This document shows positions 40,113 through 58,008 of a DNA stretch of 58,626 bases, piece after piece. The stretch comes from an uncultured Bacteroidales bacterium (GTDB lineage: Bacteria > Bacteroidota > Bacteroidia > Bacteroidales > Bacteroidaceae), in NCBI GenBank assembly GCA_902774005.1, contig CACYGK010000009.1:1-58626 (forward strand), given 5' to 3'. Positions within the stretch are counted from its first letter, which is position 1; the number at the start of each line of letters is the position of its first letter. The translations under genes were made by a program, and so were the position numbers. Under the pieces are notes generated by a model. It did no database searches. It was given only the letters and a program-made list of their open reading frames with translations, and was not told where the DNA came from.

Positions 40113-42968
40113 ATGTCTTACAAAATTAAACGGAAAACACTGCGCAATCACCTTCTGATAGGAGGTGCGCTAGTTGCTGCAAGTTTTGGCGTATTTTCTT
40201 GTTCGGACAAGTATGACTTAGACTCAGACAAGTCTCAACCGACGGGTCTGAACAGTATCTATGGATACTTGGAACAGCAGGGAAACTACACAAATTACTT
40301 GCGACTGATCAATGATCTTGGTGAGGCAGAAGTGCTTAACCAAACAGGTAGTAATACTGTGTTCCCGGCAGACGATGCTGCTTTTGCACAGTTCTTTGCG
40401 AACAACCCATGGAAGGTTTCGAGCTATGAGAGTTTGACTCTGGCTCAGAAGAAGCTATTGCTTTATTCTTCCATGCTCTCCAACCCTTTCTCAACCTCAA
40501 TGCTTTCTACGGCAGAGGGTCCTATCAAGGGTGAGGTGTTCCGTCGTTCATCTTCAGTAACAATCTACGACTCTGTACTCGTGGTTCCGAACAGCGACCC
40601 GGAGGGCATCATGCCTGAGACAGAGCGTTTCGACCAGCTGCGTAAGAGTACGACTCGTACCAGCACCGTCTTGTTCGACGACCAGTCTCAGACGAATCCG
40701 CTGATTCACTTCAACGCTCAGTTCTTGACAGCTAACAAGATTCTGACCGATGACATTGACTTCATCTATGCGAAGTGGCTCGGTAAGTCGAAGCGTGGCG
40801 AGGAAGACGTGTATGTAAACAACACAAAAGTTGTCGAACCTGACATCTTCTGTAAGAACGGTTTCGTTCATCGTGTTGATGAGGTTCTTCTTCCTTTGGA
40901 CAACTTGGCTGAGACCATACGCAAGACTAACAGAACCAAACTGTTCAGTGGTATTGTCGAGCGATTTGCTGCTGTAGCTTATAGTCGCGACCTGACCGAT
41001 GCGTACAATAACAGTAAGGGCACCAATTACGACTCAGTATTCATCAAGCGTTACTATTCCGACCGCTCTTACGGTTCAACAGCTGCCGGTACAGATGCCG
41101 ACAAGGCATTCGACCTTGATAAGGACGATCGTGCACTCAACGGTTCGTTGATTTTCGACCCGGGATGGAACGGTATGTACCCGCAGATGACTGCGAAGGG
41201 TAACGACCCGATGATGGAGGATATGATGGTAATGCTTGTACCGACCAACGAGGCTCTCAAGTCATGGTGGGACGAGGGCGCAGGTCTTGATATCCATACT
41301 TTCTATGCACCAGGCGAGACTGATACAAAGGCAGGTCTGAAGAAAGTTCCTGAGAGTGTACTTGCGAAGCTTGTCAATGCCGGTATGTTGACTCCGTTTA
41401 CTACTACCATTCCTTCTAACTTTGACAACATCCTCGACGATGCCAACATGAAGCTGGGTATTACCGAGGGTGATATCGATAGCGTCATGCTTACCAGCAA
41501 CGGTCTGATATACTTGACTAACAGGGTGTTCTCACCGACTGACTACCGTTCAGTCCTCAGTCCTGCTGTCATCGATACAATCCGTTTCAGTATGATTCAG
41601 AATGCAATCGAATGTCTGAAGTATGAGGCATACCTCAACTCAATGGTATCACATTATACATTCCTCCTGCCTGAGAACTCAGCTATGGAAAACTATGTTG
41701 ACCCTGTGTCGTTCTACTACCAGACACCACAGATGTGGAAGTTCGGACTTGATAGGAGCAAGGCAGTAGGCAATCGTCTCTCGGTTGGAGTATATAACTG
41801 TGAAATTGACGACGCTGGTAATCCTACTCCTTTAACAGCTAAGCCCGCCAGGACTTTGACAGGTGCAAGTGAAACTCATATAAAGGACCGTCTGGAAGAA
41901 ATTCTCGACAACCTGATTATTACTGAAGATTATTCTCCAACCAAGCAGTTCTACAGGACAAAGGGTAATACCTTCGTACAGATTATTCCTTCTAAAACTG
42001 TAAGCGGAGTGGATGTATATGCTACATGGCAGAAAAACTATAATACTCCGATCAGTATTATCGACAATGCCGAGAACCATTTCAATAAAGACAACGGTTC
42101 TACTTACATTGTTGACAGAATGCCTATGGGCGGTAGAAAATCGGTTGCAGCTACATTGGCTGATATTTCTGATTTCTCCGACTTCCTTTGGGTTCTTGAA
42201 AACAGTGGAGCACTCAGCAAACTGGATACAAAGGATAGCTGGGTAGCTGGTGACCAGAATTATGGTAACCTGCTCAACGAAAAGCCGAAGGGAGCTATCG
42301 GTGCTGAAGATGCAACAAGTAGCAAGAAGGTTACATACCTCCTCAACAACTATCATTATACAATGTATGTTCCGACTAATGCAGCTATGGCTCAGGCATT
42401 TGCCGACGGTCTGCCCGATGCTACAGCAATAGCTGAGGCTGAACAGAAAGATATAGACGAAGGTATTGGAAGTGGTGATCCCGCATCCCATGTCGATTCT
42501 CTTAAAGAGGTATTGCTCGACTTTGTGAAGTATCACATCCAGGACAACTCTCTCTTCGTTGACGAGGGCTTTGCATCAGGTTATTACGAATCAGGAAAGA
42601 CCGAGCTCATCAAATCTACAACTGTTGACGAGACAACAGGCGAGATGATATGGGACGGTACATACTCTCCGGGTCGTCCATACAAGTTGGAAGTTACAGT
42701 CACTCCAAGCGGTATTTCTGTCAAAGATAAGATGGGTAACACACGCCATGTGGTTACTTCAGACGGAATTTATAATCTGATGGCTCGTGAATATTGGAGT
42801 GAAGGTGGTAAGGTGACAACCAATCCATATACTACGGTACTGAACAACTCATCGTTCGTTGCTATCCATGCAATCGACGGTCCTCTCTACTTTGATACTC
42901 CAAATCAGTTCAAATACGAGTATAAGAAACTTTACATAGATACTTCTGCAGCTAAACGTCGTAAATAA
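40113..42968 (+). CDS. Fasciclin (FAS1)-domain surface lipoprotein, 951 residues
   Basis: A lipoprotein signal ends FSC (Cys30) and is followed by SDKYD, acidic residues like the surface-export signal of Bacteroidetes lipoproteins. FAS1-type segments recur: SIYGYLEQQGNYTNYLRLI with NTVFPADDAAFAQFF (about 45-130, closing NGFVHRVDEVLLP), a diverged middle region (VERFAAVAYSRDL onward), and a third with ISDFSDFLWVLENSGALSKL and YTMYVPTNAAMAQAF (about 690-790). FAS1 domains usually mediate adhesion to proteins or glycans. I chose the ATG at 40113 because it opens directly into the signal; an in-frame start 12 codons upstream adds sequence unlike a signal. First gene of the operon, 8 bases before the SusC gene. 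Confidence 0.85.
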   Translation: MSYKIKRKTLRNHLLIGGALVAASFGVFSCSDKYDLDSDKSQPTGLNSIYGYLEQQGNYTNYLRLINDLGEAEVLNQTGSNTVFPADDAAFAQFFANNPWKVSSYESLTLAQKKLLLYSSMLSNPFSTSMLSTAEGPIKGEVFRRSSSVTIYDSVLVVPNSDPEGIMPETERFDQLRKSTTRTSTVLFDDQSQTNPLIHFNAQFLTANKILTDDIDFIYAKWLGKSKRGEEDVYVNNTKVVEPDIFCKNGFVHRVDEVLLPLDNLAETIRKTNRTKLFSGIVERFAAVAYSRDLTDAYNNSKGTNYDSVFIKRYYSDRSYGSTAAGTDADKAFDLDKDDRALNGSLIFDPGWNGMYPQMTAKGNDPMMEDMMVMLVPTNEALKSWWDEGAGLDIHTFYAPGETDTKAGLKKVPESVLAKLVNAGMLTPFTTTIPSNFDNILDDANMKLGITEGDIDSVMLTSNGLIYLTNRVFSPTDYRSVLSPAVIDTIRFSMIQNAIECLKYEAYLNSMVSHYTFLLPENSAMENYVDPVSFYYQTPQMWKFGLDRSKAVGNRLSVGVYNCEIDDAGNPTPLTAKPARTLTGASETHIKDRLEEILDNLIITEDYSPTKQFYRTKGNTFVQIIPSKTVSGVDVYATWQKNYNTPISIIDNAENHFNKDNGSTYIVDRMPMGGRKSVAATLADISDFSDFLWVLENSGALSKLDTKDSWVAGDQNYGNLLNEKPKGAIGAEDATSSKKVTYLLNNYHYTMYVPTNAAMAQAFADGLPDATAIAEAEQKDIDEGIGSGDPASHVDSLKEVLLDFVKYHIQDNSLFVDEGFASGYYESGKTELIKSTTVDETTGEMIWDGTYSPGRPYKLEVTVTPSGISVKDKMGNTRHVVTSDGIYNLMAREYWSEGGKVTTNPYTTVLNNSSFVAIHAIDGPLYFDTPNQFKYEYKKLYIDTSAAKRRK

Positions 42969-42976
42969 TCTATATC

Positions 42977-45900
42977 ATGAAGAAAATATTATCAATCCTA
43001 ATGCTGATTGCGTGTGTTTGCACCAGTGCAAATGCGCAAGTTAAAGCAGGCGATATTGTAAGTGGTCAGATTTGGGACGATCTCGAACCTCTGATGATGG
43101 TTAACGTTGTCGAAATTGACCATAACAACCGTATCGTTGCAGCGGGAACTACCGATATCAACGGTAACTTCTCGTTCAAAATCGTGAGTCCTAAAGATAA
43201 GATTCGTATATCTTATATAGGTTGTGAGACAAAGATTCTTCCTATCACCAAGCGCTCGTTCGGTAAGATTGTACTTACCAACCAGACTCAGTTGAAGGAA
43301 GTAGTCGTAAAGGCAGTCAAGAAGACTCAGACTTCGGGTCTGTCTATTCCTGTGACGGAAATCTCTGTAGCACAGCAGACTATCGACATGAAGGAATTCG
43401 AAGGTCTCGCAATGACCAGTGTCGATGAGGCTCTGCAGGGACGTATCTCAGGTCTGGATATCGTTGCCAACTCTGGTAACCTTGGTTCCGGTACTACAAT
43501 GCGTCTGCGTGGTGTCAACACCATCAACGGTAATGCCGACCCTCTTATCGTAGTAAACGGAAACGTCTTCTCAACCGACGCTAACGAGAACTTCGACTAT
43601 ACCAATGCCAACGAGGAAAAGTTCGCTGAACTTCTGAATGTAAACCCTGAGGATATCGAGTCAATCTCCGTCCTCAAGGATGCTGCCGCTACGGCCATCT
43701 GGGGTTCTCAGGGTGCAAACGGTGTAATCGAAATCCGCACTAAGCGTGGTGCACGTGGTAAGACAAAGATCAACTACTCTTACCGTTTCACAGGCAGCTG
43801 GCAACCTAAGGGTTACAAACTGCTCAACGGTGACGACTACACCATGTACCTTAAGGAAGCATACTTCAACACAACCCAGAACGCAGAGTTCGCTACTCCG
43901 GGTAAGGCAAACTACATCCCTGAAATCGGTTACAACAAGGAATTCTCAGAATATGAGATGTACAACAACAATACCGACTGGGTAGATGCCGTTTCACAGT
44001 TCGGACAGAACCATCAGCACTATATCGCTCTTACGGGTGGTGGTGAGAAAGCAAACTTCCGTATCTCAGGTGGTTACGACCATGCTACCGGTATCGTTAT
44101 CAAGCAGGTACTCGACCGTTTCACTACACGTGTAGCTCTCGACTACTTTGTCAGCGACCGAATCAAGGTAAGTTCAAACTTCGACCTTACTCATACCAAG
44201 AACCAGAAGAACTATCAGTATGGCGGTAAGGACCTTATGGCTATAGCACAGATTAAGATGCCTAACCTTTCCATCTATCAGCAGGACGCCAACGGTAACG
44301 AAATAGGTGAGTACTACACAATGAACCCGTATCTTACTGCTGCACAGGCTGGTTACAATGCTGCATCCGGTATGCATCCTAATCAGAGAGACCTGTTGAA
44401 AGACCAATACGGTCTTCCTAACCCGGTAGCCATTGCACACCAGGCAAAGCGTGACTGGACAGAACTCAAGCTCTCTCCTGAGTTCATCCTGGCATACGAC
44501 ATCCTCGGTACTGAAGCTGATCAGACACGTCTGAAGTATGAAGGACAGATCATATTCGACATCTACAGTCGTGGTGAGGATACTTACTTCCCAGGTTCGC
44601 TCATTGCAACCAACTGGTCTTCTTCCGATACTTATAATGCGGCAGAATCCTACTCGTATAAGCAGCATGGACTTTCTACCCGTCACTCTCTGACATTTAC
44701 TCCTCACTTCAAGAACGAAGACCATAGTCTCTTGGCAATGGTACGCTACCAATATACTAACGGTACGTCTTCCGCACAGACAAACGGTCAGAAGTGGCTT
44801 CCTACAGTCGATGGAATCACATCACCGCTTGCAGGAGGTATTCCTACTTCATTCAGCACAGGTGCCGGTGAATGGAAATCACAGTTCTTCCTCTTCCAGG
44901 TACACTACGCATACAAAGGACGATACATCTTCGATGCTACTCTGCGTCGCGATGCATCTACAAAGTTCGGTCCGTCAAGCCGTTGGGGTAACTTCCCTGG
45001 TCTCTCTGCCCGTTGGAACATCAGCGACGAACCTTGGATGAAATGGGCTGAAAACTGGCTCTCCATGCTTTCTATCCGTCCGGGTTGGGGTATCGTAGGT
45101 AACCAGCCGGGTGGTGAAGGATGGTACTACTCCAAGTATTCCACAGGCTCCAACTACCTCAGCTCTTCATCGGTTATTCCGTCAAACATTCGTCTGGCTG
45201 ACCTGAAGTGGGAAAAGACTGAAACCTTCAACCTCGGTTTCGACTTCGGTTTCCTCGACGGAAAGATTGATGGTGACCTCTCTATCTATACTAAGAAGAC
45301 AACCCAGCTGCTCAACACAAATGGACGTTATAAGATTCCATCATCTTCCGGTTTCAACGCACTCGACGTGAAGAACGAGGGTAAGATGCGAAACAACGGT
45401 TGGGAATTCAACATCAACGGACACAAGATTATCAGTGCAGGCAAATTCTCCGTTGACTTCAACATTACATTCGCTAACTCACGTAACAAGATTCTTGAGA
45501 TGGACGAAACCCTTCTCGAAGGATATAACGAAGAGTTCGGATTCAGAAACGGTCAGTACCTCTCACGCGTTCAGCTCAACAACCCGCTCGGTTCCATCTA
45601 CGGATTCCGTTCAAAGGGTGTTTATGCTTACTCAAGTCTTCCACGCGTACGCGACCGTGCAACAGGTGTTGAATCATACGTAGATATGGATATGGCAGAC
45701 ATCGACAAGTCAAAGTACATCATTCTCGAAAACGGTGGTAAGAACGCACCTGTAGTACGTACTCCAAACGGCGACGTAGTTTACAACGCTTCTGGTACAC
45801 CAAAGAAGATGTATTTCGACTACAATGGTGGTACACGCTATGAATTCCAGGGTGGTGATGCAATCTACGATGATGTTAACCGAGACGGTAGCATCGACGA

Positions 45901-46432
45901 ACTCGATATCGTTTACCTCGGCAGTACATTGCCAAAGCTGACCGGTGGTTTCGGTGTTAAGTTCAACTATGGTCCTCTCTCACTCAACCTCCAGTTCAAC
46001 TACCGTTATGGTAACAAGTTGCTCAACTATGCTCGTATGAACCTCGAGAACATGTCGAACAACAACAACCAGTCACAGGCTGTTAACTGGCGTTGGCATG
46101 CAGAGGGTGATCAGGCGTTGCTCCCACGTGCCGCAACATCGCAGACAGGTGTTAACACATACAACTACCTCGGATCTGACCGCTTCGTTGAGGATGGTTC
46201 ATTCCTCCGTCTCAACTACGCTCAGCTCTCATACACATTCACTCCTCAGTCGTTGAAGAAGTTGGGTATCTCACAACTCCGCTTCAACCTTATAGCTAAT
46301 AACGTATTCTGTATAACGAAGTACTCCGGTCCGGAACCGGAACGTCCACAGGCAGGTTTCGCTCCTGCATCGGATAGTGGTAACACACCGCGTGCAAAGT
46401 CGTTTACAGTAGGTGCATCAATAACTTTCTAA
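42977..46432 (+). CDS. SusC/RagA-type TonB-dependent outer-membrane transporter, first copy
   Basis: The 1,151-residue protein is a 22-strand barrel importing a bound ligand with energy from TonB. The signal peptide ends ANA before Gln21. A carboxypeptidase-regulatory-like domain (GDIVSGQIWDDLEPLMM, GTTDINGNFSF) covers about 25-110, then the plug with the SusC signature MTSVDEALQGRISGLDIV and LRGVNTINGNADPLIVVNG, VEVLKD-like EDIESISVLKDAAATAIWG, and the barrel ending RAKSFTVGASITF. It pairs with the SusD gene 13 bases downstream. The substrate is unknown; no carbohydrate enzyme is in the operon. Confidence 0.96.
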   Translation: MKKILSILMLIACVCTSANAQVKAGDIVSGQIWDDLEPLMMVNVVEIDHNNRIVAAGTTDINGNFSFKIVSPKDKIRISYIGCETKILPITKRSFGKIVLTNQTQLKEVVVKAVKKTQTSGLSIPVTEISVAQQTIDMKEFEGLAMTSVDEALQGRISGLDIVANSGNLGSGTTMRLRGVNTINGNADPLIVVNGNVFSTDANENFDYTNANEEKFAELLNVNPEDIESISVLKDAAATAIWGSQGANGVIEIRTKRGARGKTKINYSYRFTGSWQPKGYKLLNGDDYTMYLKEAYFNTTQNAEFATPGKANYIPEIGYNKEFSEYEMYNNNTDWVDAVSQFGQNHQHYIALTGGGEKANFRISGGYDHATGIVIKQVLDRFTTRVALDYFVSDRIKVSSNFDLTHTKNQKNYQYGGKDLMAIAQIKMPNLSIYQQDANGNEIGEYYTMNPYLTAAQAGYNAASGMHPNQRDLLKDQYGLPNPVAIAHQAKRDWTELKLSPEFILAYDILGTEADQTRLKYEGQIIFDIYSRGEDTYFPGSLIATNWSSSDTYNAAESYSYKQHGLSTRHSLTFTPHFKNEDHSLLAMVRYQYTNGTSSAQTNGQKWLPTVDGITSPLAGGIPTSFSTGAGEWKSQFFLFQVHYAYKGRYIFDATLRRDASTKFGPSSRWGNFPGLSARWNISDEPWMKWAENWLSMLSIRPGWGIVGNQPGGEGWYYSKYSTGSNYLSSSSVIPSNIRLADLKWEKTETFNLGFDFGFLDGKIDGDLSIYTKKTTQLLNTNGRYKIPSSSGFNALDVKNEGKMRNNGWEFNINGHKIISAGKFSVDFNITFANSRNKILEMDETLLEGYNEEFGFRNGQYLSRVQLNNPLGSIYGFRSKGVYAYSSLPRVRDRATGVESYVDMDMADIDKSKYIILENGGKNAPVVRTPNGDVVYNASGTPKKMYFDYNGGTRYEFQGGDAIYDDVNRDGSIDELDIVYLGSTLPKLTGGFGVKFNYGPLSLNLQFNYRYGNKLLNYARMNLENMSNNNNQSQAVNWRWHAEGDQALLPRAATSQTGVNTYNYLGSDRFVEDGSFLRLNYAQLSYTFTPQSLKKLGISQLRFNLIANNVFCITKYSGPEPERPQAGFAPASDSGNTPRAKSFTVGASITF

Positions 46433-46445
46433 TAGTTTAATAGAT

Positions 46446-48368
46446 ATGAATTACATTAAGAAAACAATAAAGAAAGCTGCATTTTTCATGGTGGCAGGAC
46501 TCGGTTTAAGTTCTTGCTCGATGGATCTTCTGCCGCTCAATGAGGTAGTTCTTGAAAACTACTGGAAGGAAGGCGATGACGTACAGAGCGTGGTAAATTC
46601 CTGCTATACAGCAATGCAGTCGAAAGACTATATACAACGTCTTATAGTTTGGGGTGAGTGTCGTTCCGACAATACAACCCCCAACTCATCTGCGGATGCA
46701 AATCTGCGTAACATGATGAAGGGTAATCTGAAGACAACAAACCCATGGTGCGACTGGGGAGCATTCTACACAGTCATCAACCGATGCAACACAGTATTGC
46801 ACTATGCGTCTGAGGTTGCCCAGAAAGACCCTAACTTCACAGAGTCCGACTACAACATCGTAAAGGCAGAAGTGAAATTCATGCGTGCCTTCAGTTATCT
46901 GACTCTTATCAAGACATTCCAGAACGTACCGTTCGTATTGGAGCCGTCAATCGATGATACTCAGTTCTACAGAGTAGGGCAGACATCGTTCAATGAAATT
47001 CTGACAGCTCTCATCAACGATATTGAAGAATGCAAGAACTTCCCACCTATCCGCTATGCAGCAAATCAGCGTTACTATAACACTGGTCGTGTAGCGCGTA
47101 TGGCGATGTATTCACTCCTGGCAGAACTCTATCTGTGGCGTGCTTCCGATGCATCAGCCGATGTGTCTTCGCGTCAGTCTGACTACCGTGCATGTATTTC
47201 CTGCTGCGACTATATCCTCAATATTAAGATTGCGCAGTTCAAGGAAAACAACTACATTAACGACAACGACGGACAGTCAATTAAACTTGAGTCTGTGTGC
47301 GACCGCGACCATGTATATACCACATATGGCATTCCTTTGTTGAAGGAAGCTGATGGTTCTACACCTCCTTCTACCGGTCCTTTGGCTACAAATACAATCT
47401 TCGGCGACGGAAACTCTTTCGAGTCCATGTACGAGATTACCTTTGTAAGGAATCAGGACAAGAACTTCGGTGTCGGCGAGATGTACGGCGGTTATGCTAA
47501 AGAAGATGCAACTTCGACAGTCAAACTCGTCCTTGCCGATCCTAACATCATCAGTACTACTCCGACAGCCATCACATTCGACAACACAAAGCTGTTCTCT
47601 GTGACATCCGACTTCCGCTCACAGGCTCCGTTCTACTATACCGACGGCAGTGGCTCACAGTCTATATATAAATATGTATTGTCGCAGAACATGGCAGCTT
47701 CCAGTTCAACCACCTCCACTTATGGCAGGTTGGGTAACTCCGTTAACTCATACGTGAAGCCGACTGCAGACCAGCAGGAACTTTATCTGCGCTCAAAGGA
47801 GGGCCAGTCGGAGAACTGGATACTCTATCGTCTCTCAGAGGTAATTCTGTTCCGTGCTGAGGCAGAAATCGCACTTGCCGGTACGATGACAGGCGACTCT
47901 GACGGCAGTCCTGCTACGGCAACAGCCGGATTCACTGGTTATCACAACGGTGCAGATCTCGGTAGTGCAGGCGACCTCTATGCCGATGCATTCAATCTGA
48001 TATCTGCGGTATATTGGCGTTCAAACCCATCTGCAATCAATATTACCAGTGCATTGCTTCCTAAAATTACAAACTTCACCACTTACGGTGACTATATGAC
48101 ACTGCTCATGAATGAGCGTCGTCGTGAGTTCCTCTTTGAGGGCAAGCGTTATTACGACCTTGTGCGTCAGGCACGTCGCAATGGCAACACTGCAAACTTC
48201 GCCGCTGCCCTCACATCGAAGTACGGAGATGCATCAAAGGCAATCCTGATTAAGATGTCTAATATGGATTTCATGTACATGCCAGTTGCTAGATCACAGA
48301 TGAAGGTTAACCCGAATCTGCATCAGAACTCATGCTATCTTGATGAAGAAGAATCAGTTAAAAACTAA
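46446..48368 (+). CDS. SusD/RagB-type surface ligand-binding lipoprotein, first copy
   Basis: The 640-residue lipoprotein (SSC, Cys24) lids the preceding SusC barrel. The N-terminal NYWKEGDDVQSVVNSCYTAM and AEVKFMRAFSYLTLIKTFQNVPFV segments are the SusD tetratricopeptide core, and the C-terminal LMNERRREFLFEGKRYYDLVR is the family signature. Length is somewhat above average, with insertions in the middle (about 290-400) that may shape the binding site. It stops 6 bases before the next FAS1 gene. Confidence 0.95.
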   Translation: MNYIKKTIKKAAFFMVAGLGLSSCSMDLLPLNEVVLENYWKEGDDVQSVVNSCYTAMQSKDYIQRLIVWGECRSDNTTPNSSADANLRNMMKGNLKTTNPWCDWGAFYTVINRCNTVLHYASEVAQKDPNFTESDYNIVKAEVKFMRAFSYLTLIKTFQNVPFVLEPSIDDTQFYRVGQTSFNEILTALINDIEECKNFPPIRYAANQRYYNTGRVARMAMYSLLAELYLWRASDASADVSSRQSDYRACISCCDYILNIKIAQFKENNYINDNDGQSIKLESVCDRDHVYTTYGIPLLKEADGSTPPSTGPLATNTIFGDGNSFESMYEITFVRNQDKNFGVGEMYGGYAKEDATSTVKLVLADPNIISTTPTAITFDNTKLFSVTSDFRSQAPFYYTDGSGSQSIYKYVLSQNMAASSSTTSTYGRLGNSVNSYVKPTADQQELYLRSKEGQSENWILYRLSEVILFRAEAEIALAGTMTGDSDGSPATATAGFTGYHNGADLGSAGDLYADAFNLISAVYWRSNPSAINITSALLPKITNFTTYGDYMTLLMNERRREFLFEGKRYYDLVRQARRNGNTANFAAALTSKYGDASKAILIKMSNMDFMYMPVARSQMKVNPNLHQNSCYLDEEESVKN

Positions 48369-48374: not shown

Positions 48375-50255
48375 ATGAATATATTAAATTTCAAACATTT
48401 TGCTGTTGCCGTCCTGTCATGTGCGGCATTACAGTTCGGACTTGTAAGTTGTTCCGACGACCCAGGCGTCGAGAACTACTACACAAGTACGTCTCAGTAT
48501 GCTACTGACTACCTCATGGCTAATGGGCAGTTCAGTGAGTACACAAAGATACTCGAGCGTGCAACCGGTGAGAAGGGTACACTGCGTCTCCTTCAGCTTC
48601 TGGGTTCTTATGGCTCATATACTGTATTTGCTCCTACTAACGATGCTGTATATACATACCTCGCAAGTAAGGGTGTTTCATCAGTTGAAGAACTGTCAAA
48701 GGAAGACTGCGACACCATCGCACTCAACTCTATTATTGAGAATGCCTACTTCACAACCGACGTGAACAATGGTACATATCCTCAGACCAACATGCTCGAC
48801 CAGTATCTGACTATCAGCAGTGATTCAGATACAGTCTCTGTTCCCGGACAGGTTCTGTTGGCAATGACCATCAATAAGGAAGCTTTGATTATCCATGCTG
48901 ACGACTCAGTGTCTAACGGTGTAGTTCACACTATCAACAAGCTTATCTTTACAAGTACGGAATTCATTTCCGACTTCCTTGACAATGATGAGAACTGTAC
49001 ACTCTACAATGCAGCACTGAAGGCAACAGGTGTCAATGAACTCCTGAAAGACTATATCGATCCGACTTATTCTGTTGGTTCCGACTCTATCGACTGGACC
49101 AACGATGCACTCGTGATGCCTACCGCTGTAGAGTATGATAACGTGGCATATCCCGAAAAGCGTTTCTTTAAGTTCACGATGTTTATCTGTACCGACAAGG
49201 TTCTGAAAGAGAAGTACAATATCACTACTCTCGACGACCTGCGTGCGAAAGCACATGAACTCTACGACCCGGTATATCCGGATGATAAGAACATTACAGA
49301 TGAGAGAGACCGCAGAAATGCACTCAACCGTTTCATCTCTTATCATATCCTCAACCGTTATGCCGACTACTACAAACTCACCTGTGTAGATGGTCCTAAC
49401 TCAACGCTTGCAGTCAACTGGAACCGTCGTAAGTGGGATATCTCCGACTGGTACGAGACCATGATGCCATACTCTATCCTTAAGTGCTCATACCCGAACG
49501 GTTCTCAGGCAGGTCTTTATATAAACCGCCGTGGTGTACAGTCAAGAGCTGATGAACGTGGTGTATTCGTTCGTGGAGCAAAGGTTACTCCCGAAGGCAA
49601 CATGGGCATAAGCACAAATAAGTGTCTGAACGGTATCTACCATTACATCGACGATATCATTGCATACGACCAGAACACTCAGCAAGTTGTATTGAACGAG
49701 CGTATGCGTATCGATGCCTCTACACTCTCACCTGACTTCATGAACTGTACAAGTATAACCGGTTCTCCTGCACGTGGATGCTACACCAGGACTACTAACG
49801 AGAATGGTAAGTACGGTACTGGGGATGCTACCAGCAACCACAACAACAAGCAGACATGTCTCGGTTTCAAGGCAGGTTTCGTAAAGAACTTCAAATACGA
49901 CAACAACACACACCTCCACGTTCGTCCACGTACACTTCATTTCTGGTCATATCAGGGCGATGAGGTTACCATCCTCGGTATATTCGACTTCTCAGTTAAG
50001 ATTCCACCAGTACCGGCTGGTACATACGAGGTTCGACTCTTCACTTGCGTTGCTTTTGATAACCGTGGTATCATCCAGGTTTACATTGACGACATTCCTC
50101 AGGGCATTCCGTTCGACATGCGTCCAGGTGGTGTGGCACTCTTCGGTTGGAAGAGCGATGACGCCCTTGGTGATGAAGATGCCGTTGCATCATTCGACAA
50201 GTCAATCCACAACCTCGGATGGATGAAGGGACCGATACTTCTCAGCTACTTCTGA
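48375..50255 (+). CDS. Fasciclin (FAS1)-domain surface lipoprotein, C-terminus frameshifted
   Basis: A lipoprotein signal ends VSC (Cys26), followed by SDDPG, matching the acidic surface-export pattern. A clear FAS1 domain spans about 45-195: YATDYLMANGQFSEYTKILE, SYTVFAPTNDAVYTYLASKG, NGVVHTINKLIF. A second FAS1-like region and a beta-sandwich follow (PAGTYEVRLFTCVAFDNRGI, IQVYIDDIPQG). The frame closes at TGA 50253-50255 just after GWMKGP, but coding sequence resumes one frame over and runs 70 codons to TAA 50464-50466. The intact protein would be about 696 residues. It lies between the first SusD gene and the third FAS1 gene. Confidence 0.85.
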   Translation: MNILNFKHFAVAVLSCAALQFGLVSCSDDPGVENYYTSTSQYATDYLMANGQFSEYTKILERATGEKGTLRLLQLLGSYGSYTVFAPTNDAVYTYLASKGVSSVEELSKEDCDTIALNSIIENAYFTTDVNNGTYPQTNMLDQYLTISSDSDTVSVPGQVLLAMTINKEALIIHADDSVSNGVVHTINKLIFTSTEFISDFLDNDENCTLYNAALKATGVNELLKDYIDPTYSVGSDSIDWTNDALVMPTAVEYDNVAYPEKRFFKFTMFICTDKVLKEKYNITTLDDLRAKAHELYDPVYPDDKNITDERDRRNALNRFISYHILNRYADYYKLTCVDGPNSTLAVNWNRRKWDISDWYETMMPYSILKCSYPNGSQAGLYINRRGVQSRADERGVFVRGAKVTPEGNMGISTNKCLNGIYHYIDDIIAYDQNTQQVVLNERMRIDASTLSPDFMNCTSITGSPARGCYTRTTNENGKYGTGDATSNHNNKQTCLGFKAGFVKNFKYDNNTHLHVRPRTLHFWSYQGDEVTILGIFDFSVKIPPVPAGTYEVRLFTCVAFDNRGIIQVYIDDIPQGIPFDMRPGGVALFGWKSDDALGDEDAVASFDKSIHNLGWMKGPILLSYF

Positions 50256-50466
50256 AACCGGAGGTAACCAGGGAACTTGCTTCCGCGATGCTCCAAATAC
50301 CATTCGTAAGGTACTCGGTACATTCGTGAGCGACGGTAAGACCGACCACTACCTGCGATTCCAGCAGAAACTGAAGTCAACTTCGAACGCAATGAACTTT
50401 GACTTTTTGGAGATTTGTCCAAGCTCAGTATATAACAACGAATACTACGCAGAAGACAGATGGTAA
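50227..50466 (+). pseudogene. Out-of-frame C-terminal segment of the preceding FAS1 lipoprotein
   Basis: In the +1 frame relative to the upstream gene, codons from about 50227 read as protein (ATSETGGNQGTCFRDAP, TDHYLRFQQKLKSTS, DFLEICPSSVYNNEYYAEDR) and end at a normal TAA 26 bases before the next ATG. It has no start or binding site of its own. The shift must lie between the +1-frame stop at 50224-50226 and the TGA at 50253-50255. Confidence 0.75.
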
Positions 50467-50492
50467 TAACGTTTAGCGAAAAATACAATATT

Positions 50493-52427
50493 ATGAAAAA
50501 TAGCATAAAAAATACATTGCGCACGGGTGCTGCCGCTGTTTTCGGTTTGATGGCGTTGTATGCTTGTTCCGACGATCGGAACAGTCACTTCAACGACGGT
50601 TCGGCATACGAGGCTACAGCTACACAACCATTCGACGGCACAGCCATGCAGGCACTGGAAGAGGAAGCATCCGACTTTGCTGAGATTGTAAAAGCAGTAG
50701 GATTCGACGTCTATCTCAACTCATCCAGTTCATTTACAATATGGGCTCCGGCAAACGGCACCTTCAATAAGGATAGTGTTCTTAATGTGCTCTCAACTAG
50801 CAAAGACCTTGTTCTGAAGCAGTTCGTACAGAACCATGTTGCACGCTACTCAGTTCCATTGGATCTTGAGTCGCACCATATCAGTCTTCTCAACGGCAAG
50901 GGTTTCATCATGACCAGCAAATCACAGCATAAGATCGGTGATGTGAACATAAGCTCGAAGAATAATATCAGATGTAACAATGGTATTCTCCACATCCTCG
51001 AAGGTAATCTCCCATTCCAGAGCAACATCTTCGAATTCATCGAGTTGGAGTATCTCAAATCCACGAATCCTACCAAGGAAGATATCTCTCTGTATGCATA
51101 TCTGAAGACAGCAGACAAGGATTCACTCGACGAGTCTCGTTCCATCTATCGTGGATACGATGCTTATGGTAACAAGCTTTGGGTCGATTCCGTAGTATGG
51201 CGTAACAACACCATCCTTCGCGACTTCAACGCCCTCATCTACGAAGAGGACTCTAACTACATTGCTCTCGTTCCTTCGGTTGAGGCATATCAGGGAAGAT
51301 ACAACGAAGCTCTTCCGTATCTGAAATATAACCCATCGATGGACAAAGGACTCGAATACAAGCGTACCGACTCTCTGACAAACAGCTACGCTAACCGCTT
51401 TGCTATGACCGACCTCTTCTACAGCCGCAATATGAACGAGTCATGGGAAGACTCTCTGATTTCTACCCAGTACTTAAAGTATAGCTGGCCCGACCACCTT
51501 TACTATCGTAAGGAACCTGCAAACCTTCCTGACGACAAGACTGTCAACGACATCCTTGCCAAGGTTGGTGTTGCCGACTCTATCGTATGCTCTAACGGTA
51601 TTGCATACCGCTTCAACGAGTATCCTTTCGATATCTACGAGCAGTTCCTCAAGAAAATCAATATGAACACCTTGAGTCTTCGTACCAACTATATAAGTCC
51701 GGAAGAGAAAATCAAGGGTTCTGAGGTGCAGGTTACCAAGAACGTCGGTGACCCCGACTATCAGTCAGGTATTTTTTCTGTGGTAATCTACGAAACAGAT
51801 GAGGAAGGTGAGCGTGTAGAAGACGAAAACGGAAATCCTATAATAAAGGAGAATATAATGCAGAATTATTCATATATCTACGTTCCGGCATCATCTAAGG
51901 TAAACACTTACATCGGATTCAACGTTCCAAACAACTTCTCCGGTAAGTACGACATCTATGTTATTACCATGCCAATATGGTTCTATAAGATGGAAGCAGA
52001 AGGTCTTATACCGACTAACAAGAAAGCTTATAACTTCCGTGCGTGGATGTGGGAGAAAGATGAATCAGGCAACTATCCGAGCGGTGGTATTGTCATGAAG
52101 GACGACGAAGGCAAACAGATATTCACGACTCCCGAACCTGTCGACATTCGTAATATCCGCGATACCACCTATATAGGATCATACGAATTCAAGTATGCAT
52201 ACTATGGTGAAAACGAACCGGGTGTAATCCTCCAGATTGCTACAGTTGTCGGCACAAGTCAGCGCGACAAGTATTCATACGACATGATGTTCCATGGAAT
52301 CGTATTGAAGCCGCACAGAGAAGACATTACACCGGCAGCAAAGAAGCATCCGCTCAAAACGTACTCAGTTCCTGTCAAAGGTACTGCAACTTTAGGTAAA
52401 GGAATAAAAAAAATTTTAAAACGATAA
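50493..52427 (+). CDS. Fasciclin-like surface lipoprotein, 644 residues
   Basis: The lipoprotein signal ends YAC (Cys25) followed by SDDRN, the same acidic pattern as the other two FAS1 proteins. One FAS1 domain is evident (about 45-190): ASDFAEIVKAVGFDVYLNSSS, FTIWAPANGTFNKDSVL, VLKQFVQNHVARYSVP, NGILHILEGNLP. The remainder is divergent, with beta-rich sequence at 400-600 and a basic C-terminus. The ATG was chosen because it opens directly into the signal; an in-frame start 11 codons upstream overlaps the previous gene's true end. It precedes the second SusC gene by 4 bases. Confidence 0.8.
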   Translation: MKNSIKNTLRTGAAAVFGLMALYACSDDRNSHFNDGSAYEATATQPFDGTAMQALEEEASDFAEIVKAVGFDVYLNSSSSFTIWAPANGTFNKDSVLNVLSTSKDLVLKQFVQNHVARYSVPLDLESHHISLLNGKGFIMTSKSQHKIGDVNISSKNNIRCNNGILHILEGNLPFQSNIFEFIELEYLKSTNPTKEDISLYAYLKTADKDSLDESRSIYRGYDAYGNKLWVDSVVWRNNTILRDFNALIYEEDSNYIALVPSVEAYQGRYNEALPYLKYNPSMDKGLEYKRTDSLTNSYANRFAMTDLFYSRNMNESWEDSLISTQYLKYSWPDHLYYRKEPANLPDDKTVNDILAKVGVADSIVCSNGIAYRFNEYPFDIYEQFLKKINMNTLSLRTNYISPEEKIKGSEVQVTKNVGDPDYQSGIFSVVIYETDEEGERVEDENGNPIIKENIMQNYSYIYVPASSKVNTYIGFNVPNNFSGKYDIYVITMPIWFYKMEAEGLIPTNKKAYNFRAWMWEKDESGNYPSGGIVMKDDEGKQIFTTPEPVDIRNIRDTTYIGSYEFKYAYYGENEPGVILQIATVVGTSQRDKYSYDMMFHGIVLKPHREDITPAAKKHPLKTYSVPVKGTATLGKGIKKILKR

Positions 52428-52431
52428 GACT

Positions 52432-55400
52432 ATGCAACACTTCAATAAAATCGGAATAGCAGCATTGATGTTCCTCGCAGGAACAGCACTACCTATTGTT
52501 GCACAAGAGCAGACAGAATCTGAAGAAGTTGCTGAAGCACCAGCTGCACCTAAAAAGAAGGTGAAGAATGTGAAGAAGTACCCAACCATTGCGGTTGCAG
52601 GTAAAGTCTTCGATGCAGCTACAGGCGAACCCCTTGCCGGTGCTCAGATTCAAGCATACAACAATATGCGTTATACAGCGATGACCGACGAAGACGGTTC
52701 GTTCGTAATCAACGTACCCGAGTTCATTACTTCAATCGCCGTACGACTTGAAGGTTACAACCTGAATCGTACTCCACTCAACGGACGCACCGAAGGTGTA
52801 GATGTATATCTTCGTTCCGACATCTTCAAGAACGACTATCAGGCAGTGACCACAGGTTCTCATTCTGCCTATGCCGACAGATTCGAATCAACCAACGCAA
52901 TCACAATTGACGAAGAACTCCAGAACAAGCTCGGAGGTGATATCCACACCATCTTCCGCAGTGCAAATCCGGGACAGGGTTTGGCAATGTTCATCAATGG
53001 TCTCAACTCGCTCAATTCTAATGCGATGCCACTTGTCGTTCTCGACGGAGTCATCTTCGACCAGATGTACGACACAGAGATGCTCCACAACGGCTACTTC
53101 AACAACCTGCTTCAGGCCATCAACATCTACGACATCGAAAGCGTAGAAGTCCTGAAAAACGGTACAGCCATCTATGGTGCCAAAGCAGCTAACGGAGTCA
53201 TCCTCATCCGCACTAAGCGTTGCCGCTCAATGGCTACACGCATCGATGTCAACATAAGCGGTGGTGTCAGCTTCCGTCCGAGCACAATGAACATGATGGG
53301 TGCAGAGGAATACCGTTCCTTCGCTTCCGACCTGCTCGGTACTACCGACACCAAACTCACCGACTTCAAGTTCCTCAATCCTAATCCTAACTATTATTAC
53401 TACAACATGTACCATAATAATACGAACTGGAAGGATGAGGTTTACAAGAAAGCAGCATGGGATCAGCACTACGGCATCGCCATCCAAGGTGGTGACGACG
53501 TAGCAGCCTACAACCTCTCAGTAGGATACATGGACTCAAGGTCTATCCTCAAGAAGAACGACATGCAGCGTTTCAACATCCGCTTCAATACCGACATCAA
53601 CTTCAACCAGTGGTTCTCGGCACAGTTCGATGCCAGCTACACCAACGTCACCAGAAACCTGCGCGACGACGGTCTGTCATCTACCTTCGAGATTCCTTCA
53701 ACGGCTTCTCCAGGCTTCCTCTCCTTGGCTAAGGCTCCGTTCCTGTCACCTTACGACTTCGCAACCGACGGAACTCAGACATCATTCATCGCCGATGCCG
53801 ACACATATCTCGATGAGATACTCGGTAAGGGTAAGTCTTCACTTGCCAACCCTACAGCAATACTCGAGAACGGTGAGGCAAAGAACAAGAACCACAGCGA
53901 CTGTACGATGATCAACATCGCCATCGCACCTAAGTGGCAACCTACAAAGAACTTCTGGCTGTCCGACCGCTTTGCTTACACAATGCAGAGTTTCGACGAG
54001 GCATATTACACACCTATCAAGGGTATGCCATCATATCTGAAACCAGGTAACCAGTACACAACTGAAAACTCCAAGTATTCGGTATTCACACGTCACAACT
54101 CAGTATTCAACGACCTCCGTGCCGATTGGACTATCCTTCCTGACGGAGCTCACCACGTCGATGTATTCGGTGGTTTCCGTTTCATGAACGACACCCACAA
54201 CGGCTCATACCTCATCGGTGATAACACAGGTAACGATAAGACACCTAACAACTCTTCCGGTCAGGGCAACAAGGAGACACGTGGTCTCGACGTATCTTGG
54301 CGTACACTCGCATACTATGCAAACGTCAACTACAACTTCCAGGAGAAGTACTACCTCCAGGGACAGCTCTCAGTTGAGTCCTCTTCACGTTTCGGTAAGC
54401 AGACCGACGGAGGTGTGAAACTCTTCGGAGTGCCTTGGGGAATCTTCCCATCCATCCAGGGTGCATGGGTAATCTCCAACGAGAAGTTTTTCCGTCCTAA
54501 CAAGGGTGTCAACATGCTGAAACTCAACGTCGGATTCGAATCAGTCGGAAACGATGCCATGGACAACAGTGCCACACTTACCTACATGGCAACATCACCT
54601 CTGTTCACCAACACCGCTACATCTATCGGTCTGGCTAACATCGGTAACCCGAAACTCCGTTGGGAAACTACCAACCGCTTCAATGCAGGTCTCGAAGGTA
54701 ACTTCCTCAACAACCGACTCAACGTTAAGTTCAACTACTACCTCTCAAAGACCAACAACCTCATCTCACTCGGTACTCTTGCATACGTTGCCGGACTTTC
54801 CGACTACACCTATCTCACCAACGACGGTTCACTCAAGAACTCAGGATTCGACTTCTCTCTCCTCGGAAAGATCGTCGATCGTCGCAACTTCAAGTTCGAT
54901 GCAGGTGCCAGCATAGGTCACTACCGTAACAAGCTCGTTTCTCTGCCTGAGGGTAAGGACAGCTTCACAACCGACATGTACGGTGGAACTATCCTTTCTG
55001 AGGTAGGTCGTCCGGTAGGAGTCTTCTACGGCTTCAAGACCGACGGAGTATATGCTACATCCGAACAGGCAGCAGCCGACGGCAAATATATTGTCAACTC
55101 GGGCAACAACGTTTACTTCAAGGCCGGCGACACCAAGTTCATCGACCAGAACAACGACGGTAAGATTGACTATGAAAATGACAGGGTAGTGATAGGCGAC
55201 CCGAACCCCGACTTCTTCGGAACATTCACACTCCATTTCAACATTCACCAGCGCATCGATATCACAGCCAACTTCAAATACTCAGTCGGCAACGATGTAT
55301 ATAACTACCAGCGTGCACTGCTTGAAAATGGTTCTATGTTTATCAACCAGACAAAGGCTGTCAACCGTCGTTGGACATCTGAAGGACAGGTTACCGACGT

Positions 55401-55698
55401 TCCTCGTGCTACCTACCTCGACCCGATGGGCAACAGCCGCTTCTCCGACCGTTGGATTGAAGACGGTTCATTCCTGAAACTCAAGAACATCACAGTTTCA
55501 TATCAGGTTCCTATTCGCAACGAATACATTCAGGGACTCACCATATGGGCTGCTGCTAACAACCTCTTCACACTCACACGCTATCTGGGTACCGACCCTG
55601 AAGTGTCATGTGGAAACGCAGTCTTGATGCAGGGTATCGACGCAGGATATCTGCCTGCCGGACGCAGTATCAACCTCGGTGTAAAGATAAACCTCTAA
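52432..55698 (+). CDS. SusC/RagA-type TonB-dependent outer-membrane transporter, second copy
   Basis: The 1,088-residue transporter has a signal peptide ending IVA before Gln25, a low-complexity Glu/Ala/Pro/Lys linker (about 25-50), the regulatory-like domain GKVFDAATGEPLAGAQIQAY, a plug with FINGLNSLNSNAMPLVVLDG and IESVEVLKNGTAIYGAKAANG, and the barrel ending AGRSINLGVKINL. The plug signature is more diverged than in the first copy and the linker is absent there, so the two pairs are not a recent duplication. A matching SusD gene follows after 36 bases. Confidence 0.95.
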   Translation: MQHFNKIGIAALMFLAGTALPIVAQEQTESEEVAEAPAAPKKKVKNVKKYPTIAVAGKVFDAATGEPLAGAQIQAYNNMRYTAMTDEDGSFVINVPEFITSIAVRLEGYNLNRTPLNGRTEGVDVYLRSDIFKNDYQAVTTGSHSAYADRFESTNAITIDEELQNKLGGDIHTIFRSANPGQGLAMFINGLNSLNSNAMPLVVLDGVIFDQMYDTEMLHNGYFNNLLQAINIYDIESVEVLKNGTAIYGAKAANGVILIRTKRCRSMATRIDVNISGGVSFRPSTMNMMGAEEYRSFASDLLGTTDTKLTDFKFLNPNPNYYYYNMYHNNTNWKDEVYKKAAWDQHYGIAIQGGDDVAAYNLSVGYMDSRSILKKNDMQRFNIRFNTDINFNQWFSAQFDASYTNVTRNLRDDGLSSTFEIPSTASPGFLSLAKAPFLSPYDFATDGTQTSFIADADTYLDEILGKGKSSLANPTAILENGEAKNKNHSDCTMINIAIAPKWQPTKNFWLSDRFAYTMQSFDEAYYTPIKGMPSYLKPGNQYTTENSKYSVFTRHNSVFNDLRADWTILPDGAHHVDVFGGFRFMNDTHNGSYLIGDNTGNDKTPNNSSGQGNKETRGLDVSWRTLAYYANVNYNFQEKYYLQGQLSVESSSRFGKQTDGGVKLFGVPWGIFPSIQGAWVISNEKFFRPNKGVNMLKLNVGFESVGNDAMDNSATLTYMATSPLFTNTATSIGLANIGNPKLRWETTNRFNAGLEGNFLNNRLNVKFNYYLSKTNNLISLGTLAYVAGLSDYTYLTNDGSLKNSGFDFSLLGKIVDRRNFKFDAGASIGHYRNKLVSLPEGKDSFTTDMYGGTILSEVGRPVGVFYGFKTDGVYATSEQAAADGKYIVNSGNNVYFKAGDTKFIDQNNDGKIDYENDRVVIGDPNPDFFGTFTLHFNIHQRIDITANFKYSVGNDVYNYQRALLENGSMFINQTKAVNRRWTSEGQVTDVPRATYLDPMGNSRFSDRWIEDGSFLKLKNITVSYQVPIRNEYIQGLTIWAAANNLFTLTRYLGTDPEVSCGNAVLMQGIDAGYLPAGRSINLGVKINL

Positions 55699-55734
55699 AC
55701 CACCTCCCAACAAACTCTGAAAAAACTCACAATT

Positions 55735-58008
55735 ATGAAAATAAAATCAATCATAGCATTTGGATTGCTTCTGCTCGGAGTCGGAGCAGCCACTACATCG
55801 TGTGAGGACATGATGACGCCTGACAACAAGCTTGTCACCACCGATTTTGCTCCTCAAGACACCCTGTATCAGATGATGGGTATCATAAAGCGCATGCAGA
55901 AACTTGCCGACCGCACCGTACTGCTCGGTGAGGTAAGAGCCGACCTCGTTGATGTTGACCAGGCCCATTCGTCTGCTGATATAAAAGAACTCGGAAACAA
56001 CGATGTTTCCACTACCAACGTATATAACTCTCCTGCCGATTACTACGCTGTCATCAACAACTGTAACATCTATCTTGCATACGTTGACTCACTCTTCCAG
56101 GTATATGGCGACTACTACTACCGCAAGGAAGTCATCGCAGCCAAGTGTTTCCGTGCATGGTGCTACCTCGAACTCGCGAAAATCTACGGTGCAGTTCCAT
56201 TCTTCACCCATCCGATTCTCACACCCGACGCAGCAGAAAGCGCACTTGCTCAGCCAAAGGCAGACATGCTTACCATCCTCGACTTTGCCATCGGCGACCT
56301 CGCTGATTATGCAAAGACAGAATCCGAGAACGGTACAGTACGTCCAAGCTACGGATACACATGGAACAACACCTTCTCCGGTCGTAGCCTCTTCATTCCG
56401 TTCCGCGTGATGCTTGCCGAACTCTACCTCTGGCGTGGTTCCTACAAGGGCAAGGCAGCCGGAAAAGAAGACTTTATCAATGCCGTACGTATGTACCACG
56501 ACTACCTCACCTACCCGGGCGAGGAGAAATCAGTAGAGTACGACGCATGCGAATGGTACAGTAACGATTGGAAGCAGCTCAACGGTCAGATGAACTACGG
56601 CGACCACTACTCAGCTCGTTCCAAGGAAGACTACTATGCCGGAGTGCTCCCTCTCGACACAGCTGCTTACTTCGGATACACTACCGACCTGCGTGCCATC
56701 TTCAACTCTACCATCTCCAACTACTACTATCCGGCACTCGTTCCGTCTGCTCGTATGAGCAACATATCCAAGGCACAGGACTATGCATTCCTTACCTATA
56801 AGATGGGTACCGGTGTTGCAGGCGATACAGTCTTGACTTATGCCAAGAAAGACGCAGCTGCTTTGGGTGGCGAACGCAGAGTGGGCGACCTCCGTCTCAA
56901 CGCTATTTACATTGACCGTTCAAACGTGAGCGAGTCTAAGTACAACGCCAAAGTCAACTCTGTAAAGCAGTACATTGTTAAGTGGACAGAAGGTAACACA
57001 TCTCTGTCTAACGACAACCGTCAGCGTTACATCTTCTACTACACTACCAACATGCTCTATCTCCACATGGCAGAGGCACTCAACCTCGCAGGCTATCCTG
57101 AGACAGCTATGGCAGTGCTTACCCATGGTCTTTCTTACGAGACACTCAACACATCCTACTACCTCATTCACAACAAGCAGTCCTCTACAGGTGCCGATAC
57201 CACAATCCAGGTACGAGTTGTGTCCGATGCTGAGTTCGATGACCTCTGTAAAATCAAGACTTACGGTTACACCAACACTACCTCCGACTTCGACGACGAC
57301 GCTGACAAAGCAGCCAGGGCAAACAACTCGTTCGTAGTTTGGAAGAGCACAGTATTCACCCCTCTCAACAAGTTCGGTTGGTATCGTACACTTGGAACAG
57401 AAGGCCGTTGGAGCACAGTATATCGTAGTGTAGATCGCATTCAGATAGGTATCCACTCACTTGGTTCGGGTGATACTGAAAACAATGAGCATTACCGTCT
57501 TCTTAATCCTAATGATAATACTAAAACTGGTGGCATCAGTTTTGTAGATATCATTAATAATCTTAAGCAGGGTGGTATTCGTCCGGCAGCTCCTATCGGA
57601 TGGGCACCGGGTGTTGCAGTACTTTCATTCGACGACTGGAAAAACCATCCTGACAACAAACTGTCCCCCACACAGAAGACCACTGCTAACTACAACAAAT
57701 ACGTAGATTCCTACAATGTTTATCCTAAGCGTGTGGCAGACTATAAGAGCGACTCTACATACCTGCGCTCACCTGCCGTACTCGACAAGTGTCAGGAACG
57801 TGTACGCTGGCTCATCCTCGAAGAGGAAGCACTCGAAGGTTCATTCGAAGGAAACCGCTTCTACGACATCCTGCGCCATCAGATGCAGAGTGGAAAAGTC
57901 GGCGGTGTCGGTTCTACAATCACAATGCCCGACTCAATCGTGAAACTCTATGGTGCTACTCCAAACATGGAAGGCAAACCATGGTACATCAAACTTCCTG
58001 AGCGTTAA
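55735..58008 (+). CDS. SusD/RagB-type surface ligand-binding lipoprotein, second copy
   Basis: The 757-residue lipoprotein (TSC, Cys23, then acidic EDMM) is larger than typical SusD proteins. Core helices include YYAVINNCNIYLAYVDSLF and YRKEVIAAKCFRAWCYLELAKIYGAVPF; the C-terminal RWLILEEEALEGSFEGNRFYDILRHQM is the SusD family motif. Extra length lies in loops between about 380 and 640. It is last in the operon and is followed by a strong terminator. Confidence 0.94.
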   Translation: MKIKSIIAFGLLLLGVGAATTSCEDMMTPDNKLVTTDFAPQDTLYQMMGIIKRMQKLADRTVLLGEVRADLVDVDQAHSSADIKELGNNDVSTTNVYNSPADYYAVINNCNIYLAYVDSLFQVYGDYYYRKEVIAAKCFRAWCYLELAKIYGAVPFFTHPILTPDAAESALAQPKADMLTILDFAIGDLADYAKTESENGTVRPSYGYTWNNTFSGRSLFIPFRVMLAELYLWRGSYKGKAAGKEDFINAVRMYHDYLTYPGEEKSVEYDACEWYSNDWKQLNGQMNYGDHYSARSKEDYYAGVLPLDTAAYFGYTTDLRAIFNSTISNYYYPALVPSARMSNISKAQDYAFLTYKMGTGVAGDTVLTYAKKDAAALGGERRVGDLRLNAIYIDRSNVSESKYNAKVNSVKQYIVKWTEGNTSLSNDNRQRYIFYYTTNMLYLHMAEALNLAGYPETAMAVLTHGLSYETLNTSYYLIHNKQSSTGADTTIQVRVVSDAEFDDLCKIKTYGYTNTTSDFDDDADKAARANNSFVVWKSTVFTPLNKFGWYRTLGTEGRWSTVYRSVDRIQIGIHSLGSGDTENNEHYRLLNPNDNTKTGGISFVDIINNLKQGGIRPAAPIGWAPGVAVLSFDDWKNHPDNKLSPTQKTTANYNKYVDSYNVYPKRVADYKSDSTYLRSPAVLDKCQERVRWLILEEEALEGSFEGNRFYDILRHQMQSGKVGGVGSTITMPDSIVKLYGATPNMEGKPWYIKLPER

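What the first reader, a model, noticed from the sequence alone, without database searches (positions are those of the whole stretch)
40113..58008. A tandem SusCD-fasciclin locus without polysaccharide enzymes
Seven genes with small gaps encode FAS1, SusC, SusD, FAS1, FAS1, SusC, SusD. SusCD pairs normally sit with glycoside hydrolases or proteases and a sensor; here there is neither. All three FAS1 proteins are lipoproteins with acidic residues right after the Cys (SDKYD, SDDPG, SDDRN), like the surface-export signal of Bacteroidetes lipoproteins, so capture proteins and transporters may form one outer-surface complex. The two SusC proteins differ enough to suggest two ligands or two parts of one ligand. 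FAS1-SusCD neighbours are, as far as I know, annotated but functionally undescribed.
Basis: partly seen in the sequence, partly recalled or inferred. Interest (0 to 1): 0.78.

Follow-up and report, generated by a model that had tools for sequence, protein, structure and literature searches.

The report
Conserved seven-gene SusCD-fasciclin surface cassette
A rumen-type bacterium carries a seven-gene set, kept in the same order in distantly related bacteria, that codes for two nutrient transporters and three surface-type proteins and most likely captures and imports pieces of plant pectin.

Summary
The seven genes are real and tightly packed. The claim that no polysaccharide enzyme is present is wrong: a GH43 endo-arabinanase-like gene lies 493 nt upstream on the same strand, and a homologue holds that place in all 8 related loci whose upstream flank I fetched. 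The contig stops 618 nt after the last gene, so the other side cannot be judged.

The order FAS1-SusC-SusD-FAS1-FAS1-SusC-SusD is deeply conserved: I verified it in cassettes from 11 anonymous GTDB families of the class. In trees of 43 of them each SusC, SusD and the last two FAS1 positions form their own clade (supports 0.999-1.0), so the cassette looks like one old unit.

Predicted structures show FASb and FASc as two FAS1 domains plus a C-terminal jelly roll like carbohydrate-binding modules. Lipoprotein signals with acidic residues are conserved.

Neighbours in unrelated families often concern rhamnogalacturonan-I (RG-I). The RG-I lyase PL11 occurs in 6 of 7 cassette genomes but 4 of 289 others of the class sample; yet most PL11 genes lie far from cassettes. 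Best explanation: a twin SusCD surface machine with FAS1/CBM-like capture proteins for RG-I-type pectin. Ligand, surface exposure and a physical complex are inferred. Orphan FASb genes also exist.

The parts
36560..39619 (+). GH43 endo-arabinanase-like gene with GH43_C, aBig_2 and LamG domains; neighbour of the cassette (true start probably 36644, by eye)
   Evidence: Pfam; PDB best 4kca; homologue is the nearest upstream gene in 8 of 8 group-A loci with fetched flank, GH43 + GH43_C in the 6 of these scanned
40113..42968 (+). FASa: lipoprotein, probably four FAS1 domains (ORF opens at 40077)
   Evidence: Pfam; profile matches to TGFBIp and periostin; FAS1 motifs by script and by eye
42977..46432 (+). 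SusC1, TonB-dependent transporter
   Evidence: own clade, support 1.0
46446..48368 (+). SusD1, lid lipoprotein
   Evidence: Pfam; D1 and D2 split with support 1.0
48375..50255 (+). FASb: lipoprotein, two FAS1 domains and a CBM-like jelly roll; frame-shifted near 50235, similarity continues in another frame to 50463
   Evidence: structure of the UBA2744 relative
50493..52427 (+). FASc: lipoprotein, two FAS1 domains and a CBM-like jelly roll (ORF opens at 50460)
   Evidence: Pfam; structure
52432..55698 (+). SusC2, TonB-dependent transporter
   Evidence: own clade, support 0.999
55735..58008 (+). SusD2, lid lipoprotein
   Evidence: Pfam SusD-like_3 over cut-off
58032..58069 (+). terminator-like hairpin and T run after SusD2
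   Evidence: 13-pair stem then T7 (such hits overall are only slightly above shuffles, 20 vs 14.7)
13082..17629 (+). PL11 rhamnogalacturonan lyase, 1515 aa, 22 kb away; context, not part of the cassette
   Evidence: Pfam

Best explanation
A self-contained outer-membrane capture-and-import apparatus of the SusCD kind, specialised for RG-I-type pectic glycans (rhamnogalacturonan backbone with arabinan and galactan side chains). Three surface lipoproteins hold the polymer: FASa through a row of FAS1 domains, FASb and FASc through FAS1 pairs that end in CBM-like jelly rolls. Cut pieces pass to two different SusCD transporters, which import two parts or sizes of the same glycan with TonB energy. 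Locus-specific enzymes beside the cassette (here an endo-arabinanase) do the cutting. Shown here: gene content and order, conservation as a unit, predicted folds of FASb and FASc, lipoprotein signals, neighbour enzymes, the genome-level association with PL11. Inferred: surface exposure, glycan binding, RG-I as ligand, co-transcription, a physical complex.
For: Order and position-specific clades across 11 families. Median gaps 3-29 nt in 51 named cassettes. Lipobox in 66/70 FASa, 75/81 SusD1, 98/103 FASb, 73/76 FASc, 65/71 SusD2, with an acidic residue at +2 to +5 in 66/66, 71/75, 96/98, 72/73, 63/65 of these (my own pattern, which also hits 32/84 SusC1 and 10/83 SusC2, but with an acid in only 1/32 and 2/10). 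CBM-like C-termini. Neighbours: GH43, GH28, PL11, PL4, GH51-type, GH2, GH35, SASA/GDSL esterases, RhaT with sugar kinase, aldolase and isomerase, AraR/NrtR-type regulator. PL11 in 6 of 7 cassette genomes vs 4 of 289 others of the class (p 1.6e-9); 11 of 14 vs 27 of 281 in the order (p 1.1e-8). 7 of 42 PL11 genes within 20 kb of a verified cassette vs 0.78 expected and 0 of 34 for xylanase GH10 (p 0.015).
Against: Cassette genomes are plant degraders in general: GH10 is in 6 of 7 vs 37 of 289. 35 of 42 PL11 genes are not within 20 kb of a verified cassette. Some PL11 bearers show no cassette (G129, G215, G080, G272; control Bacteroides ihuae has PL11 but no fasciclin hit), so RG-I use does not need it. 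Some neighbours are not pectin-specific (GH115, GH30, cyclophilin, PPDK, aminotransferase) and several had no Pfam family. FASb also occurs without SusCD. Genomes are related, so p values overstate. Jelly-roll matches also include laminin and Cry4Ba; fold shows no function.
Confidence: 0.55

Rival explanations
1. Same kind of machine, other ligand: arabinogalactan or ester-linked glucuronoxylan, or different plant glycans for different paralogous cassettes; the neighbours only reflect each locus.
For: A' loci have GH115 and an esterase, G239 C5 has GH30 and an esterase; genomes carry up to three cassettes with different flanks; cassette genomes are also GH10-rich.
Against: PL11 is associated beyond GH10: 5 of 6 vs 4 of 37 among GH10-positive genomes (p 0.0007); no GH10 within 20 kb of a verified cassette (0 of 34).
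Confidence: 0.27
2. The FAS1 lipoproteins are adhesins that attach cells to plant fibres; the two SusCD pairs are ordinary transporters that share the operon.
For: FAS1 is known for adhesion, and one paper passage reads a highly transcribed FAS1 protein of a symbiont as adhesion (PMC10199937); 23 of 80 named loci have FASb without SusC/D beside it.
Against: Each FAS1 position is bound to a fixed SusC/SusD position across families.
Confidence: 0.12
3. Protein or glycopeptide uptake of the RagAB type.
For: Both SusC have RagA among their solved relatives.
Against: Other SusC homologues score better there (8aa4 first for both); the scanned flanks are rich in carbohydrate enzymes; clear peptidase genes were not prominent, although few flank genes were scanned.
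Confidence: 0.05

Closest known systems
Levan and dextran utilisomes of Bacteroides thetaiotaomicron (PMC7618045; abstract and discussion seen)
   Same: SusCD core plus surface glycan-binding lipoproteins encoded together; capture, then import.
   Different: One SusCD pair, one glycan-binding lipoprotein and one enzyme lipoprotein there; here two SusCD pairs, three FAS1 lipoproteins and no enzyme inside the unit. A complex is proven there, not here.
RG-I utilisation loci of Bacteroides (cited in a passage of PMC10807430; otherwise recalled)
   Same: PL11, GH28 and related enzymes with SusCD.
   Different: No FAS1 described in the passages seen; the control Bacteroides ihuae has PL11 but no fasciclin hit.
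TGFBIp and periostin, FAS1 proteins
   Same: Tandem FAS1 domains by sequence and predicted fold.
   Different: Human matrix proteins (function recalled); no transporter partner; FASb and FASc add CBM-like tails.

Membership tests
SusC/SusD transporter pair | SusC/RagA family model over cut-off | tested here: met
   TIGR04056 670 and 567 bits, cut-off 368
SusC/SusD transporter pair | SusD lipoprotein encoded directly after SusC | tested here: met
   Pfam SusD domains over cut-off (SusD2 by SusD-like_3 only); gaps 13 and 36 nt
FAS1 (fasciclin) proteins | PF02469 over cut-off | tested here: met
   52.1, 55.0, 31.2 bits vs 22; FAS1 fold in models
Polysaccharide utilisation locus | carbohydrate-active enzyme beside SusCD | tested here: met
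   GH43 493 nt upstream, kept in 8 of 8 group-A loci with fetched flank
Polysaccharide utilisation locus | dedicated sensor or regulator | tested here: inconclusive
   none among scanned window proteins, contig ends at 58626; a hybrid two-component regulator lies 3.1 kb after one G239 cassette
RG-I utilisation locus | RG-I lyase or other RG-I enzyme in the locus | tested here: inconclusive
   PL11 or PL4 beside some cassettes, 22 kb away in the window, not near many others
Surface glycan-binding proteins | surface lipoprotein with a glycan-binding domain | tested here: inconclusive
   lipobox and acidic residues, CBM-like fold; binding and exposure not testable here
Utilisome | stable outer-membrane complex of SusCD with accessory lipoproteins | not testable with these tools

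The most novel reading that the evidence does not exclude
The seven genes encode one fixed double utilisome: two different SusCD transporters bridged by three FAS1 lipoproteins into a single surface machine that holds and strips one branched pectin, making FAS1 a bacterial pectin-holding scaffold and giving a conserved architecture with two transporters per capture complex.
Probability: 0.25. Interest if true: 0.78.

Novelty: new variant of a known kind. Interest (0 to 1): 0.6.

Why it matters
It defines a conserved seven-gene unit seen in 11 GTDB families of one class, with at least 576 genome stretches encoding relatives of one of its FAS1 proteins, while NCBIfam matched none of the three FAS1 proteins of the window. 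It gives a concrete test of how loci with two SusCD pairs assemble, which the utilisome paper leaves open, and a candidate route for pectin uptake by rumen and gut bacteria.

Tried and rejected
Rejected: 'locus without enzymes'. Rejected as members: lone FAS1 genes in G292, G074, G330, G352, G251, G297, and G335, whose SusCD lies about 4 kb off on the other strand; also G041, G051, G060. Variant: G098 has a six-gene form without FASc. G427 (L252) has no recognisable FASa before SusC1; regions of G601, G488, G403, G474, G510 and G486 gave partial, rearranged, orphan or contig-cut arrangements. In the class sample I looked at 15 of the 35 genomes with a FASb hit; the other 20 had open frames of at most 370 aa and were not looked at. 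In the order sample I looked at 24 of 58.

Of the 29 named loci without the full order, 6 are partial (4 are short of genes with 4 of them near a contig end or missing FASa, 1 lacks SusD2, 1 has a split SusD1: L141, L148, L166, L183, L191, L192) and 23 have no SusC/D labelled on that strand; several of the 23 hold about 10 kb on both sides. Two of the 51 full loci hold a short end gene (FASa 125 aa in L193, SusD2 179 aa in L175).

Trees used a selection of 43 cassettes (42 by labels, L074 by position; other verified ones were left out). A first clade test that treated the six-gene variant as an outsider gave no clean SusC clade; with its two SusC counted by position the supports are 1.0 and 0.999. 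The FASb-FASc profile comparison aligned only the N-terminal part. Sigma-70-like sites were no more than in shuffles (32 vs 28.7). Rfam found only a ribosomal S4 leader. Several flank proteins had no Pfam family.

Papers: nine searches. Searches found 63, 53 and 1112 papers of which 25, 15 and 12 were listed (one search matched 'susceptible'), so they exclude little. Most subscription journals are not in the library, and no supplements were read. A search found the utilisome paper.

Full report
What is there. The window is the whole of contig C9 of a genome of 2.1 Mb in 80 contigs, 80% complete. Close named relatives of its FASb are metagenome bins such as Prevotellaceae bacterium UBA2744 and UBA2448 and rumen or deer bins. 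After the ribosomal protein operon come a GH43 gene (36560-39619) and, 493 nt on, seven same-strand genes, here called FASa, SusC1, SusD1, FASb, FASc, SusC2, SusD2. A terminator-like hairpin follows SusD2 and the contig ends 618 nt after it. FASb is frame-shifted near 50235. The GH43 protein is closest to endo-1,5-alpha-L-arabinanase 4kca among solved structures; NCBIfam places it nearest AbnB but below that model's cut-off (228 vs 750 bits).

Conservation. In the genus the same order appears at three types of locus: group A (the window's), A' and B, whose FASb are 54-80%, 37-39% and 27-31% identical to the window's. FASb-like matches occur in 41 of 61 genomes searched (own included), 36 of the 37 of the genus. 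Of 80 named loci brought in by a FASb profile, 51 hold all seven genes in order, 6 are partial and 23 show no SusC/D beside FASb. Median gaps in the 51 are 10, 15, 8, 29, 3 and 14 nt. Outside the genus, position-specific profiles recover the order in G043, in G239 (three cassettes), G122, G094, G280, G318 and G162, and in 13 of 20 further regions: G575, G385, G524 (two), G520 (two), G457 (two), G610, G397, G556, G484, G586. G059 fits by position although its FASc was not recognised and its FASa scored best as FASb. These lie in 11 anonymous GTDB families (f1, f3, f8, f24, f27, f62, f80, f126, f134, f138, f168). In trees of 43 cassettes, SusC1 (support 1.0) and SusC2 (0.999) are separate clades with six non-cassette SusC between them; SusD1 and SusD2 split with 1.0, FASb and FASc with 0.999. 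The simplest reading is one origin and inheritance or transfer as a block. The class sample also shows how patchy it is: 7 of 296 genomes with a verified cassette.

Neighbours. In group A the nearest upstream gene is a GH43 homologue in 8 of 8 loci whose flank I fetched, GH43 + GH43_C in the 6 scanned. Elsewhere: GH28 in two scanned group-B loci; GH115 and an esterase in A'; PL11 on both sides and a GDSL esterase at G239 C21; GH51-type arabinofuranosidase at G239 C1 and G520 C8; GH30, esterase and a hybrid two-component regulator at G239 C5; PL4 12 nt after SusD2, with GH2, GH115, GH28, SASA and GDSL at G094; PL11 and GH35 at G280; SASA/GDSL at G318; RhaT, a sugar kinase, an aldolase-dehydrogenase and a TIM-barrel isomerase, plus GH2, at G162; an AraR/NrtR-type regulator at G122; GH43 at G457 C7 and GH2 at G385. 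Other flank genes were unrelated (cyclophilin, aminotransferase, PPDK-like, nucleoside phosphorylase) or had no family. The recurring theme is the RG-I backbone, its arabinan and galactan side chains, its acetyl groups and rhamnose; that these families act there is general knowledge, partly echoed by a passage naming PL11, GH28, GH105 and GH106 as pectin signatures (PMC10807430). I scanned chosen neighbours, not all.

Tests of the RG-I idea. In 296 genomes of the class PL11 occurs in 10: 6 of the 7 with a verified cassette, 4 of the other 289 (p 1.6e-9). The exception, G094, has PL4 beside its cassette, seen only because I looked there. In 295 genomes of the order PL11 is in 38: 11 of 14 with a verified cassette, 27 of the other 281, which include unverified FASb bearers (p 1.1e-8). 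Control: GH10 is in 43 of the 296, 6 of 7 against 37 of 289 (p 4e-5), so cassette bearers are plant degraders in general; among GH10 bearers PL11 is still 5 of 6 against 4 of 37 (p 0.0007). Location: in 15 genomes with both, 7 of 42 PL11 genes lie within 20 kb of a verified cassette (0.78 expected at random), in G239, G280, G457 and G524 only; GH10 gives 0 of 34 (12 by script, 22 compared by contig; p 0.015). Relatedness and fragmented assemblies weaken these numbers. Against: 35 of the 42 are not close, and several PL11 genomes show no cassette.

How it probably works. SusCD with accessory lipoproteins forms stable utilisomes for levan and dextran, and that paper leaves open how loci with several SusCD pairs assemble (PMC7618045, abstract and discussion). 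By analogy FASa-c would be the capture arm, SusD1/2 the lids, SusC1/2 the channels and the locus-specific enzymes the scissors. Two old SusC clades kept side by side suggest two cargoes from one polymer. A review passage suggests that the plant FAS1 protein AtFla4 might interact with RG-I galactan side chains (PMC6032426): a hint only.

Literature. Nine searches listed no description of the cassette; three of them were capped lists. Passages read in PMC7661554, PMC2668756 and PMC10199937 treat fasciclin as adhesion only; the last reports one FAS1 protein among the top 20 transcribed genes of a symbiont that also has SusCD pairs, without linking the two in the passages seen.

Verdict. A real, widely conserved and, as far as I could search, undescribed variant of SusCD surface machinery; RG-I is the best-supported ligand, with moderate confidence.

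Noticed in passing
window 50235-50463: Frameshift in FASb: the last 76 residues of the relative match in another frame. Real or assembly error unknown.
   Followed up: partly
window 58032-58062 and 58419-58449: The same terminator-like hairpin occurs twice after SusD2; between them, by eye, the tail of a broken gene. The contig end looks, by eye, like an rRNA operon leader; two relatives' contigs also end within 150 nt of SusD2 (L038, L039).
   Followed up: no
L130, L134, L149, L150, L161, L163, L194, L199 and others; also L045, L049, L050, L052, L053, L056: Stand-alone FASb genes without SusC/D beside them; role unknown.
   Followed up: partly
L205:115-4068, L213:118-3114 (downstream of group-A cassettes): Two large genes follow SusD2 in relatives where the contig goes on: a 1317-aa protein with only a CarbopepD_reg domain recognised and a 998-aa PPDK_N protein. 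The window is cut before this point.
   Followed up: partly
window 13082-17629: The window's PL11 is a long form (1515 aa) like PL11 beside cassettes in G239 C21 and G280 (1499-1547 aa), though 22 kb away here.
   Followed up: partly
G000 contigs C14 (L006) and C77 (L058): The same genome holds a second, contig-cut cassette (C14) and a broken FASb copy (C77).
   Followed up: partly
window 34323-34355: S4-Bacteroidia ribosomal-protein leader RNA just over its gathering score (35.2 vs 34.7 bits).
   Followed up: no
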